Of a DNA stretch of 64,000 nucleotides, positions 3,375-24,298 are shown in pieces. Positions within the stretch are counted from its first letter, which is position 1. Every line of letters starts with the position of its first letter. Origin of the DNA: Legionella brunensis (lineage in GTDB: Bacteria; Pseudomonadota; Gammaproteobacteria; Legionellales; Legionellaceae); the NCBI RefSeq assembly GCF_001467025.1, contig NZ_LNXV01000011.1, positions 1 to 64,000 of the forward strand, given 5' to 3'. The notes under the pieces were generated by a model. It ran no database searches and was not told the origin of the DNA. It saw nothing but the letters and a program-made list of their open reading frames with translations. A program made the position numbers and the translations under genes.

Positions 3375-4961
3375 CTAAATTTTTACGTCAGAGCCAAAGT
3401 TCCGTAATATTGGGCCTACTTCCCAAAGACCTGTTTCAACGCCCATCTGGCGCAATTGCTGCACTCTTGACAGCTGAGCTGCACCATACATCAAATGATA
3501 AGCGATATCCACTACTCTTCGTTGTGACAAATCCTCCAAATAACTTCCTTTAATCCATTGATTAAAAGAACCAATACAAGGGCCACACCAAATCTGATAA
3601 TCATTTTTCCTAGTTGGCTCACCTTGTATCGCCCATCGACTTGATTGACCTAAATACCAGCGAAATACTAACCCCATTTTATATTTTTTATCTTCTTCTG
3701 CTTTTTTAATTTGGCTTGGATCACGATGATTGAAATACTCCTTAGTTTGTTGCCATACTTCTGCGAAATTTAAGCGAAATATTTGCTGTTCAATTTCATA
3801 GGCTAAGTTCCTTGGAATCTCTTCCAAAGAATTATAGGTTTTATAAATTGAATACAATTTATTTGCCTTACTTCCAAATAAGGTTCCGCGTTTCAAAACT
3901 TGTAACTTTACTCCCTGTTCAAACATATCAGCGGCGGCAGCCATGATCACGTCAGTCATTGATGCAGACGACATCATTTTTTTTCCTTCTTCAGATAAAC
4001 CAGATTCAACAGCTGTTTCATTAATAGTACCAGTAAGAACATAAGCAGCTCCCATTGAAAATGCAGCATATACTGCTTCTGGTGTGCCTATTCCTCCTGC
4101 AAGTCCTACACGGATTGGATTCTTGTAGGAATAATGCTGATTCATTTGATTAACCAATTTATTTATCAATGGAAAAAGAACGGTACTTGGGCGATTGTCC
4201 GTATGCCCTCCTGAATCTGCTTCAACAGTAATGTCCTCAGCAACAGGTAATTGACTTGCTAATTGTGCTTCACTTTGCGTTAGTTTTTGCTGTTGGACTA
4301 AATGAGATAAAATTTCTGCTGACGGTGGCATCATAAACTGTTTTGCAACCTCTTCTCGAGAAATTTTAGCGATGACATGATTTGGCCTTTTTATCTGACC
4401 ATCAGGAAGTAAGCTTATGCCTTTAAATGAATAATGAACAATATGAGGGCTTAATTCCATATAAGCAGAAGCAGAAACTCTTCGTACCTTTTGAGTTAAA
4501 TACACATTGACAACAGCTTCTTCAATCATGGGTTCATTAGGGCTATGGATTAAATTAGAGCCCCAACTGCACGAAATATCTTTAAGAGCATCACGAATTG
4601 TAACGATATTGTCTTCAACAATTGAAGGGATTAAGCCAGCAGCACCAAAAAAGCTAACTAATCCTGCAGATGCAGCAGCAATCACCATTTTTGCTGTGGC
4701 AATCCCATTAGCCATCTCACCGACAATATAAGGATATTGTGCTCTATGAGCTTTTAAAAAACATACATCACCTAGATAAGCTGGATGAAATAGAGGAATA
4801 ACCCCAATTAATGACCATTGCTGAATTATTTCATTAAAATTGACCTCACCTGAGATCACACCACGTTGATGTGATATTGGATCTTCAACGACAAACCATA
4901 CACTTGGCTCCTCTTGTATTAGCTGCTTGAGGCTCTCTGTATGAAAATGAAAATTGGCCAT
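3375..4961 (-). CDS. pfaD: PfaD-like enoyl reductase of PUFA/polyketide synthesis
   Basis: A flavin-dependent enoyl reductase of the nitronate-monooxygenase-like TIM-barrel fold. In PUFA synthases PfaD works in trans to reduce selected double bonds during chain building. The protein (529 residues from this start) carries the PfaD hallmarks: VGEMANGIATAKMVIAAA near the N-terminus, the flavin-binding GLAGGIGTPEAVYAAFSMGA, and VLKRGTLFGSKANKLY further on. A longer frame reaches 5084, but the ATG at 4961 is preceded by AAAGGAT and leaves a 4-bp gap to the upstream gene, so I prefer it. It is the last gene of the leftward ole/pfa unit, far from its PfaA/PfaC partners but in the same locus. Confidence 0.9.
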   Translation of the reverse strand: MANFHFHTESLKQLIQEEPSVWFVVEDPISHQRGVISGEVNFNEIIQQWSLIGVIPLFHPAYLGDVCFLKAHRAQYPYIVGEMANGIATAKMVIAAASAGLVSFFGAAGLIPSIVEDNIVTIRDALKDISCSWGSNLIHSPNEPMIEEAVVNVYLTQKVRRVSASAYMELSPHIVHYSFKGISLLPDGQIKRPNHVIAKISREEVAKQFMMPPSAEILSHLVQQQKLTQSEAQLASQLPVAEDITVEADSGGHTDNRPSTVLFPLINKLVNQMNQHYSYKNPIRVGLAGGIGTPEAVYAAFSMGAAYVLTGTINETAVESGLSEEGKKMMSSASMTDVIMAAAADMFEQGVKLQVLKRGTLFGSKANKLYSIYKTYNSLEEIPRNLAYEIEQQIFRLNFAEVWQQTKEYFNHRDPSQIKKAEEDKKYKMGLVFRWYLGQSSRWAIQGEPTRKNDYQIWCGPCIGSFNQWIKGSYLEDLSQRRVVDIAYHLMYGAAQLSRVQQLRQMGVETGLWEVGPILRNFGSDVKI

Positions 4962-4965
4962 AGTT

Positions 4966-24000: not shown

Positions 24001-24298
24001 TATTGAAGCAATGTTTCAATTGTTTAAATTTTACTTAATTCATGAAGGCCTTCACCAAAATATGCTACAACCTCAGTTTAAAATTTTAAACCTTGATCCC
24101 AAGCTGGAGTGGAAATACCGAGGTCAAGTTACCTATGAAAACCACTCTGTTACTATACTCTTAGATATCCTCACTATAGATATTAGCACGAACTCAATAA
24201 CCTCCCTGGCAAATGCTAGCCTATGGGTTGATAATAAAAAAATATATAAAATCAGTAACTTGAGAACATTAATAGAAGATAAAGGCCTACCCAGTTAA
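18083..24298 (+). CDS. pfaC: PfaC-like synthase, KS-CLF-AT-DH-DH
   Basis: A 2071-residue megasynthase. KS about 1-430 with Cys187 (DAACASG), His322 (CHATGT) and His358 (GHT). Chain-length-factor-like second KS about 445-780, in which the nucleophile position is Glu620 (SGEEMSG), so it cannot condense. An acyltransferase-like domain about 865-1200 has GYCSGE (Ser952) instead of GHSxGE. Then four FabA-type hotdog folds, i.e. two double-hotdog dehydratases: about 1310 on (NHMPAGIMIEAG), His1569/Glu1583 (GHFKNDP...), a degenerate third lacking the His (QGSPDPTMP), and a fourth with His1961 (SHFYLDP). An AT between CLF and DH is not in Shewanella-type PfaC, where the AT is a separate PfaB; it recalls myxobacterial Pfa3 without its terminal acyltransferase. 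Probably cotranslated with pfaA. Confidence 0.9.
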   Translation: MQNNPIAIIGVSCLFPKANSLDELWKNVIEQNDCLTNASIKDWDIEPVNMLSTTNTDRVVSIRGGYIMDDLIHQSPEYLALNCDPSLDKLFHWVVYTAQAAILDAKIEKERLALTKCGLILGNLSFPTRSFNQFTEQILLAKQSEFFANLLKTKINPMNRFMSGLPAQFAAKQLNIKGDAFAIDAACASGLYAIKLACDRLQNHTADVMLAGAVNASDDLFIHMGFSALQALSPTGQSKPFHKEADGLVPGQGAGFIVLKRLEDALRDKDMIYAIIRGIGLSNDGKSKGFLMPDINGQIRAMKRTYYLSGLSPEQIDYIECHATGTQVGDKIELSSMSEVFTTKEEIHLSTLKGNIGHTITASTLGALFKVIGAFKHNCLPPAMICGSPSDYLTKSPFYLIENAMSWPNSHRPRRAAINGFGFGGCNAHAVIEAYEDQNLNEQFYIRKTINEPVAITGISIITSEHVDKEKYFHAFIQQAPAQKKNPLLSEVELSYSQAHFPPHDLKNSEGQQLMILKSVNDALNDFSVNPNDLPQTSAVYIGMQCDADICKYSLRWRLDKILNDQQNNLNQEIISNLKDQIIPALTLAHVIGSMPNIVANRINQQYDCQCPGYSYSGEEMSGIYAFKQAINELQNDEISTAIVGAVNMGADPVHLEALQSVDSKTTSHGSDVAVVLILERLSDAQRANHKIYAIITDDKHSDAHSFNEELINKIIGNSYCANGLLQIATASLCCYYGALPETSTHFPMPWPQTQGRRAMHVHCKTPSGQHAQIHLENYATAIQVPYQIQQLPKIYLYHANDLNLLVNKTVFPDTATLAVVAENSQQLQLCLKNVLDLLKSQPLKLELPTQGIFFQLTPLKGQIASVFTAAHTTYPNMGRDIILTYPHLMDTFNQQVPFQGNILSYLYQKIPQFNLSFLDELIAYSYLSQFHYLLLEHILKIKPEAMIGYCSGETNALFASGAWTDMHQMLQEIEQSEIYTRHLAGAYSVLQNPNPSWYVYRVLASVEELKKLLHEYTHCYLTIINGDNDCVVAGSSPQITQLIQHFPPESVTSMKYNMVIHCELVKKISSLWRSVHHRKTTGNIKQRHYSNARGAFYYPDDESAADALLNQATQMVHFPKLIQKAWEDGVRIFIEHGPRNLCTSLIQKILQDKPHSTISFDNSHVSSSSQFANVTALLLSHNIKINYPNIIAAHPIRKEVNSSIENNSYPLHWPIFELNLTPKTHTNYQTMPEETSPQLVEYLNYFYMKRLHALDTYVNSIKQITTSLKERDSYKLTDAKNKPLFSRADLITHASGHVSSLFGNLFAAQDHYPLQVRMPEPPLLLADRVIKLTGEPASMGLGSIETETDISADAWYLFRNHMPAGIMIEAGQADLMLISWLGIDLLNQGTRVYRLLGCELTYYEGLPETGDTLQYKIEVDSHAQDGDLRLFFFHYDCTIKNKIRLTVRKGQAGFFTYNELEQTKGIIWDPEHAEYRQQTQQDPAKVDCLKKAFSNEEISYFFKGELYRCFGMHFKKAATQNYPPSISDESLQLFDQVEEFNPQGGPWLRGYCRASLDLTKTSWFFKGHFKNDPCMPGTLMFEGCLQLMSFYIAALGYTLDYDSWRFEPISGMPFNLRCRGQATPSSKKLLYELFIEEQIAGPIPQLIADVLVTVDGIKAFHGRGIGLQLVRDYPLSYQPSLLAETHSEFATQYEGFSYDYPAMLAFAWGQPSHALGEFYSPFDTGHQVARMPGPPYNFMHFVSEINAIPNGMKPGVNATIGYVVPSSDCWYFQGSPDPTMPFCVLLEIALQPCGWLSSFVGCPLHSNHVLCFRNLDGVSTVLKTIPPDCGTIFTQVKLTNLSHYGETFILNFYVTCYLKNEIVLEMSTSFGFFKPEAFLTQTGIPPNDEELLLMQRHSDFKVDLKTFPTKYFDGNLSLPKKELLMLDEITGYWSNPTPNIKSQLRAIKKIDPSAWYFKSHFYLDPVQPGSLGIEAMFQLFKFYLIHEGLHQNMLQPQFKILNLDPKLEWKYRGQVTYENHSVTILLDILTIDISTNSITSLANASLWVDNKKIYKISNLRTLIEDKGLPS

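What the first reader, a model, noticed from the sequence alone, without database searches (positions are those of the whole stretch)
3375..24298. PUFA-synthase and OleABCD hydrocarbon genes fused into one divergent locus
Seen: pfaD-like, oleA, oleB, oleC and oleD in one leftward run, with pfaA-like and pfaC-like genes reading away from the same 77-bp promoter region. Known: Shewanella makes a C31 nonaene by feeding Pfa-derived chains to Ole enzymes, but as far as I recall its pfa and ole loci are separate. Inference: this is a dedicated pathway for a long polyene hydrocarbon, or a beta-lactone if OleB is slow, in an intracellular-type bacterium where such a product could alter membranes or the host vacuole.
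Basis: partly seen in the sequence, partly recalled or inferred. Interest (0 to 1): 0.85.

Follow-up and report, generated by a model that had tools for sequence, protein, structure and literature searches.

The report
Inserted polyene hydrocarbon gene island
A bacterium that looks like a Legionella relative carries an inserted block of nine genes predicted to build polyunsaturated chains and join two of them head to head into a long hydrocarbon; such gene pairings are known elsewhere, but this one seems separately assembled and carries two extra oxidation enzymes.

Summary
In detail: pfaD, oleA, oleD, oleC and oleB lie in one leftward run, and pfaA and a pfaC-type gene read away from the same 77-bp gap. 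[quoted passage not shown] New points: (1) The block is absent from the same site in three of four congeners read; a 14-bp direct repeat brackets it; OleA was found in 1 of 143 genomes of the order. (2) PfaA and PfaBC lie outside the clade of ole-linked synthases (a sister position is open), while OleA groups with pfa-associated OleAs (support 94/90); genomes with that OleA type have pfaD in 12 of 12, Xanthomonas-type in 0 of 7. (3) Neither flavoenzyme has a hit in the 80 loci, many of them short. Best reading: a Pfa synthase feeds OleA to make a long polyene, probably then oxidised. New variant of a known kind; product and host role unproven.

The parts
3064..3077 (+). left copy of a 14-bp perfect direct repeat at the island edge
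   Evidence: same 14 bases at 24344-24357; no other match in the window with up to 2 mismatches
3375..4961 (-). pfaD: trans-acting enoyl reductase (ORF listed to 5084; start near 4961 more likely)
   Evidence: TIGR02814 595 bits, over cut-off; translation
4966..6432 (-).
   Evidence: PF00743 9.2e-18; PDB kin include FMOs and Baeyer-Villiger monooxygenases
6453..8051 (-).
   Evidence: PF01593 1.4e-20; HpnE TIGR03467 104 bits, under the cut-off of 283
8058..9122 (-). oleA: head-to-head acyl condensation thiolase
   Evidence: PRK09258 437 bits; full-length match to chains 3s21/3row, which I recall as Xanthomonas OleA; tree
9106..10107 (-). oleD: 2-alkyl-3-oxoalkanoate reductase
   Evidence: NF042423 422 bits (cut-off 580); YGATK motif, Y137 and K141 invariant in 16 rows
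10104..11762 (-). oleC: beta-lactone synthetase
   Evidence: PRK09274 690 bits over cut-off; NF045786 645 bits (cut-off 900)
11755..12735 (-). oleB: beta-lactone decarboxylase
   Evidence: Abhydrolase_1 2.1e-27; HDWGG with H134, D135 and H298 invariant in 15 rows
12736..12812 (.). 77-bp gap between the divergent starts
   Evidence: promoter-like sites 2 found against 1.1 expected in 12650-12860, so no evidence of a promoter
12813..18074 (+). pfaA: KS-AT-ACP-ACP-KR (TTG start)
   Evidence: TIGR02813 1215 bits; domains; two ACP motifs
18083..24298 (+). pfaBC fusion: KS-CLF-AT-DH-DH
   Evidence: KS and FabA domains; PfaB family 57 bits, under the cut-off of 144, over 860-1162; alignment A1
24344..24357 (+). 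right copy of the 14-bp direct repeat

Best explanation
A horizontally gained island encodes one pathway. PfaA, PfaBC and PfaD, primed by an Sfp-type phosphopantetheinyl transferase encoded elsewhere, build a polyunsaturated acyl chain on the PfaA carrier domains. OleA takes two such chains and condenses them head to head; OleD reduces the beta-keto acid, OleC closes a beta-lactone and OleB decarboxylates it to an internal olefin. The result is a very long polyene hydrocarbon. The two flavoenzymes in the same run probably oxidise the chain, the ketone or the olefin. Shown: gene content, conserved residues, OleA branch, absence of the block at the same site in congeners. Inferred: that the block was gained and not lost in the congeners, flux from PfaA to OleA, the product, its length, and the flavoenzymes' role.
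For: All pathway genes are present as open frames in one block. OleA keeps C132, H281, N311 and E106, invariant in 18 rows and aligned with the solved OleA chain. The window's OleA groups with pfa-associated OleAs, apart from Xanthomonas-type OleA and FabH-like rows (support 94/90). pfaD is present in 12 of 12 genomes of that OleA type (11 over the cut-off; the twelfth a partial match in a 57%-complete genome) against 0 of 7 of the Xanthomonas type. oleA sits next to pfaBC in 13 of 80 named loci. PMC6463001 (abstract, introduction, results and discussion read) gives evidence that OleA draws from Pfa carrier domains. One PF01648 match in the genome, in a 239-aa Sfp-size ORF. The nine genes are absent as a block at the same site in congeners.
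Against: No product is known. OleC and OleD fall under their olefin-enzyme cut-offs, and OleC scores higher with the Xanthomonas-type model (645 bits) than with the Shewanella-type (603), so OleC does not echo the OleA result; OleD scores slightly higher with the Shewanella-type (422 against 409). The PfaB-like AT has Cys where most relatives that fit my pattern have Ser (GYCSGE). In the OleA tree the window's branch support is just under the tool's star and the window is flagged as a long branch meeting another, L076. The window's Pfa proteins sit outside the clade of ole-linked clusters, so the chain may differ from 16:4. The flavoenzymes could make an oxygenated end product instead of a plain hydrocarbon.
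Confidence: 0.65

Rival explanations
1. The end product is an oxygenated or further desaturated polyene (hydroxylated, epoxidised, Baeyer-Villiger product or conjugated pigment), made because the FMO-like and HpnE/desaturase-like enzymes act on the OleA ketone or the OleB olefin.
For: Both flavoenzymes lie inside the leftward run between oleA and pfaD, with tight spacing, and neither has a hit at E 1e-10 among ORFs of 100 aa or more in 80 PfaBC loci, 13 of them ole-linked.
Against: Many of the 80 loci are short, so absence is weak outside the ole-linked ones. The families are broad. The FMO's one relative in the order at E 1e-20 (42%, G103; 2 of 143 genomes with a match, own included) sits by histidine/urocanate genes. 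The FAD protein's relatives in the order are 27-30% (3 of 133 genomes, own included) and its HpnE match is far under cut-off. No substrate can be read from sequence, and a single-sequence fold was useless.
Confidence: 0.3
2. A beta-lactone is the end product because OleB is slow or inactive.
For: OleB's NCBIfam hits are hydrolase families under their cut-offs and none is named OleB.
Against: OleB keeps H134, D135, H298, E302 and D303, invariant in 15 rows. Clusters thought to make beta-lactones lack oleB (PMC7064751, passages read).
Confidence: 0.07
3. Two unconnected pathways share an island: Pfa makes a membrane or signalling fatty acid, and Ole condenses ordinary FAS chains as in Xanthomonas.
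For: The Pfa proteins do not nest in the ole-linked clade. OleC scores somewhat higher with the Xanthomonas-type model.
Against: OleA is not of the Xanthomonas type, and its type goes with pfaD in 12 of 12 genomes against 0 of 7. pfaD sits at the end of the ole run, not with pfaA.
Confidence: 0.15
4. A pyrone or other polyketide: the OleA-like enzyme acts like photopyrone synthase PpyS, and PfaD serves a polyketide synthase.
For: PMC4578411 (passages read) mentions Legionella PpyS homologues. A congener, G134, has pfaD beside PKS-like genes.
Against: oleB, oleC and oleD are all present. OleA scores over the PRK09258 cut-off and groups with OleA. No PpyS row was put in the tree, so this is not a full test.
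Confidence: 0.05

Closest known systems
Shewanella / Photobacterium pfaABCDE plus oleABCD (31:9 polyunsaturated hydrocarbon; PMC6463001)
   Same: Same enzymes; OleA draws polyunsaturated chains from the Pfa synthase; the operons are adjacent in P. profundum SS9 (though that paper detected no hydrocarbon in SS9).
   Different: There pfaA, B, C, D are separate genes (recalled, and as the paper names them). Here pfaB and pfaC are one gene, pfaD is in the ole run, the layout is divergent, two flavoenzymes are added, and none of the nine genes is a pfaE or pfaT.
Linked pfaD-pfaA-pfaBC-oleABCD operons of Geobacter, Desulfuromonadaceae, Planctomycetota and gammaproteobacterial MAGs (the 13 loci; Geobacter is Type I of PMC3098273)
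   Different: Those 13 loci read in one direction in the order pfaD-pfaA-pfaBC-oleA-B-C-D as far as the genes are present (all seven in 8 of 13, counting genes split in two ORFs). Here the order is oleB-C-D-A and divergent. The window's PfaA and PfaBC lie outside that clade.
Type C cluster of Desulfatibacillum alkenivorans (PMC3098273, section read)
   Same: pfaBC fusion with domain order KS-CLF-AT-DH2.
   Different: pfaD position and layout differ; no sequence of that cluster was compared here.
Xanthomonas oleABCD
   Same: OleA catalytic residues; oleB beside oleA in relatives.
   Different: OleA is in another deep branch; no pfaD in 7 of 7 genomes with that OleA type.

Membership tests
Ole head-to-head hydrocarbon pathway | OleA of the OleA family with Cys-His-Asn and the Glu reaching the partner site | tested here: met
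   (roles of the residues: PMC4578411 passages for the Glu, otherwise recalled)
Ole head-to-head hydrocarbon pathway | OleB, OleC and OleD present with catalytic motifs | tested here: met
   HDWGG, SGSTGIPKG, YGATK (motif meanings recalled)
Ole head-to-head hydrocarbon pathway | OleC and OleD over NCBI's equivalog cut-offs for the olefin enzymes | tested here: not met
   OleC 645 of 900 and 603 of 850 bits, OleD 422 and 409 of 580 bits; the models are named for Xanthomonas- or Shewanella-type enzymes, so I take this to bear on close identity rather than on the pathway
Ole head-to-head hydrocarbon pathway | olefin or ketone product detected | not testable with these tools
   no chemistry available
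Pfa-type secondary lipid synthase | PfaA with KS-AT-ACP(n)-KR, PfaC-type KS-CLF-DH-DH, and PfaD | tested here: met
   2 ACP motifs
Pfa-type secondary lipid synthase | phosphopantetheinyl transferase available | tested here: met
   one PF01648 match elsewhere in the genome, in a 239-aa ORF of Sfp-type size; whether it acts on PfaA is unknown
Pfa-type secondary lipid synthase | PfaB-type acyltransferase with its nucleophile | tested here: inconclusive
   PfaB family 57 bits (cut-off 144); Cys for Ser in GYCSGE, seen in 2 of 74 rows
Clade of ole-linked pfa clusters (Geobacter type) | PfaA and PfaBC nested in that clade | tested here: not met
   AU p 5e-47 (PfaBC) and 5e-8 (PfaA) against placing the window with the core ole-linked rows to the exclusion of two outlying rows of the clade (groups chosen after seeing the trees); sister position not rejected (p 0.30 and 0.60; PfaD p 0.35 with L134 in the clade)
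Clade of ole-linked pfa clusters (Geobacter type) | same-strand order pfaD-pfaA-pfaBC-oleA-B-C-D | tested here: not met

The most novel reading that the evidence does not exclude
A second, independent joining of pfa and ole: a Pfa synthase from outside the known ole-linked clade was combined with a pfa-associated oleABCD set and two flavoenzymes, and moved as one island into a Legionella-like host, where it makes an oxidised very-long-chain polyene not yet described.
Probability: 0.35. Interest if true: 0.6.

Novelty: new variant of a known kind. Interest (0 to 1): 0.45.

Why it matters
It puts polyene hydrocarbon genes, known from marine and sediment bacteria, in what looks like a Legionella relative, as a block with a visible empty site in congeners. 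The split of OleA into a pfa-associated and a Xanthomonas type (12 of 12 against 0 of 7 genomes with pfaD) suggests a simple sequence test for which OleA enzymes use polyunsaturated chains. The two flavoenzymes point to a possible new chemical branch of the pathway.

Tried and rejected
Novelty of the linkage itself: rejected after PMC3098273 (abstract, sections 7 and 10, passages), PMC6463001 (abstract, introduction, results, discussion) and 13 ole-linked loci of 80.

Claim that the window's Pfa genes are unrelated to the ole-linked clade: dropped. Placing the window inside its core is rejected, but a sister position is not (for PfaA the sister tree was slightly the better one); the window's end branch is among the longest in every Pfa tree.

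Plasmid or viral origin: no near match of the 21-kb block in 72,556 plasmid records. PfaD in plasmids at 43-49% in the 8 of 24 records listed; OleA in plasmids at about 22-28% in the 30 of 56 records listed. No match of PfaBC peptide patterns in viral contigs.

pfa in congeners: G134 has a full pfaD, but beside three large PKS-like ORFs and a fourth weaker one, so it is not this cluster. G137 has one 106-aa piece matching the end of pfaD and no other island gene hit on its contig.

Rows dropped: score thresholds left out weaker rows (PfaBC under 800 bits, PfaA under 600), among them L142's split PfaBC and L134's cut one. The PfaBC tree kept 58 of 74 rows (1900-3100 aa; seven long-branch rows and two duplicates left out by name); the PfaA tree kept 44 of 47; the OleA tree dropped G471 as a copy of L137. 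Of 67 loci labelled 'no ole', only 12 have 8 kb on both sides of PfaBC; by my count, 44 have at least 1.5 kb downstream, where oleA lies in the linked loci; the other labels are weak, L134 among them. A promoter scan gave nothing above chance. GC and GC3 of the island are only slightly below the flanks, so composition gives little support for transfer. The fold of the HpnE-like protein from one sequence was useless (pLDDT 32.5). Annotated neighbours of flavoenzyme kin on two plasmids showed no pfa or ole genes (the record had no annotation).
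Full report
What is there. Nine genes fill 3375-24298. Leftward from the 77-bp gap at 12736-12812: oleB, oleC, oleD, oleA, an FAD oxidoreductase, an FMO-like flavoprotein and pfaD, with gaps of at most about 20 bp or short overlaps. Rightward: pfaA (KS-AT-ACP-ACP-KR) and, 8 bp on, a pfaBC fusion (KS-CLF-AT-DH-DH). PfaD, PfaA, OleA and OleC (PRK09274) exceed curated cut-offs. OleD and the two olefin-specific OleC models do not; for OleB no hit is named OleB. OleC scores higher with the Xanthomonas-type model (645 bits) than with the Shewanella-type (603); OleD leans slightly the other way (422 against 409). 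Motifs are kept: OleA C132, H281, N311 and E106 invariant in 18 rows; OleB HDWGG and H298 in 15; OleC SGSTGIPKG; OleD YGATK with Y137 and K141 in 16. The AT of PfaBC has GYCSGE where most relatives read Ser at that place (23 of 74 rows did not fit my pattern, 2 of 74 have Cys).

Not new as a linkage. [quoted passage not shown] PMC6463001 (abstract, introduction, results, discussion read) says the two operons are adjacent in Photobacterium profundum SS9 and gives evidence that OleA draws on the Pfa synthase. Thirteen of 80 hold oleA just downstream of pfaBC, with all seven genes in one direction in 8 of 13 (L136's pfaA and L142's pfaBC are each split in two ORFs). They come from Geobacter, Desulfuromonadaceae, a deltaproteobacterium, gammaproteobacterial MAGs, Planctomycetota and a Bacillota MAG. 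None of the 80 loci has a hit to either flavoenzyme at E 1e-10 among ORFs of 100 aa or more; many of the loci are short.

An island. OleA at E up to 1e-20 occurs in 1 of 143 genomes of the order, the window's own. PfaD over its cut-off occurs in 2 of 133; the second, G134, is beside PKS-like genes. A flanking ABC-transporter gene was found at E up to 1e-100 in 5 of 22 genomes of the genus, own included, and the region was fetched from the four others. In G124 window positions 3049 and 24835 align to points 112 bp apart. In G125 the two sides are about 140 bp apart, though the APH-like gene next to the site has no hit there. In G118 the two sides are about 960 bp apart, with other DNA between. 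G129 is rearranged and uninformative. So 3050-24834 is extra here relative to those congeners, between an APH-like and a GNAT gene; gain is simpler than repeated loss, given that OleA was not found elsewhere in the order. A perfect 14-bp direct repeat (3064-3077 and 24344-24357) brackets the genes; 4 of 2000 simulated edge pairs and 7 of 1919 random place pairs of the window reach 14. None of the nine genes is an integrase or transposase; smaller ORFs were not scanned. Composition is close to that of the flanks.

Where the parts come from. In the PfaD, PfaBC and PfaA trees the ole-linked rows form one clade with a long stem, joined only by L134 (its PfaBC runs off the contig) and G685 (oleA on another contig), and the window lies outside it. 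Placing the window with the core ole-linked rows, to the exclusion of two outlying rows of the clade, is rejected for PfaBC (p 5e-47) and PfaA (p 5e-8); a sister position is not (p 0.30 and 0.60; PfaD p 0.35 when L134 is counted in the clade, p 4e-5 when it is not). These groups were chosen after seeing the trees, and the window's branch is long. OleA tells a different story. Among 38 rows there are two deep OleA branches apart from five FabH-like rows: one with the solved Xanthomonas OleA, one with all 16 pfa-linked OleAs used, eight OleAs not known to be linked, and the window (support 94/90, just short of the tool's star; the window is flagged as a long branch meeting L076). pfaD is present in 12 of 12 genomes of the second kind searched (11 over cut-off, one partial) and 0 of 7 of the first. 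Four of the 12 were already known to have pfaBC beside oleA and a fifth, G685, was found through PfaBC; the remaining seven are from four genera, so the count is not fully independent. The simplest account is that a pfa-associated ole set was joined to a Pfa synthase outside the known linked clade; a deep sister origin with later rearrangement is not excluded.

How it most likely works. Published enzymology (PMC6463001, introduction) gives the order: Pfa chain on ACP, OleA condensation, OleD, OleC, OleB. Length and double-bond number cannot be read from sequence; PfaA has 2 ACP motifs by my pattern against 1-5 in relatives. The one PF01648 match in the genome lies in a 239-aa ORF elsewhere, beside an accA-like gene (the Sfp-type and accA labels are my reading of size and of the printed proteins). 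The FMO-like protein keeps the first GxGxxG but its second nucleotide motif looks degenerate by eye. The FAD protein is nearest HpnE and desaturases among NCBIfam models, far under cut-off. Their role as tailoring enzymes is inference from position alone.

Host. The best plasmid match of a neighbouring gene is Legionella adelaidensis at 66.9%, the next 41.5%; another neighbour had none. I infer a Legionella-like host. On print: searches for Legionella with 'polyunsaturated fatty acid synthase' and with PfaA returned no paper; one search returned three papers and one search listed 20 of 693, none on this subject by title (not read, except passages of PMC4578411 and PMC7064751). The library is open-access only, so absence from print is not shown.

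Noticed in passing
G137 contig 36, L184:8011-8331: A lone 106-aa ORF matches the C-terminal end of PfaD (53% to the window's, 60% to a planctomycete's) with no other island gene hit on the contig: perhaps a relic in a congener.
   Followed up: partly
L193 (congener G118), about 15217-16176: The site where the island sits here holds about 960 bp of other DNA; read by eye it includes an F-box-like stretch (not tested).
   Followed up: no
L182/L183 (congener G134): pfaD near three large type I PKS-like ORFs and a weaker fourth, probably a separate polyketide cluster.
   Followed up: partly
OleA of G375, G260, G471 (L033, L034, L035): These gammaproteobacterial OleAs carry an insertion of about 50 residues, absent from the window's and G548's OleA.
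   Followed up: no
window 31259-34630: A 1123-aa ORF with a weak kinase-like match under Pfam's cut-off and no plasmid match; best segments 40-49% identical in three congeners.
   Followed up: no
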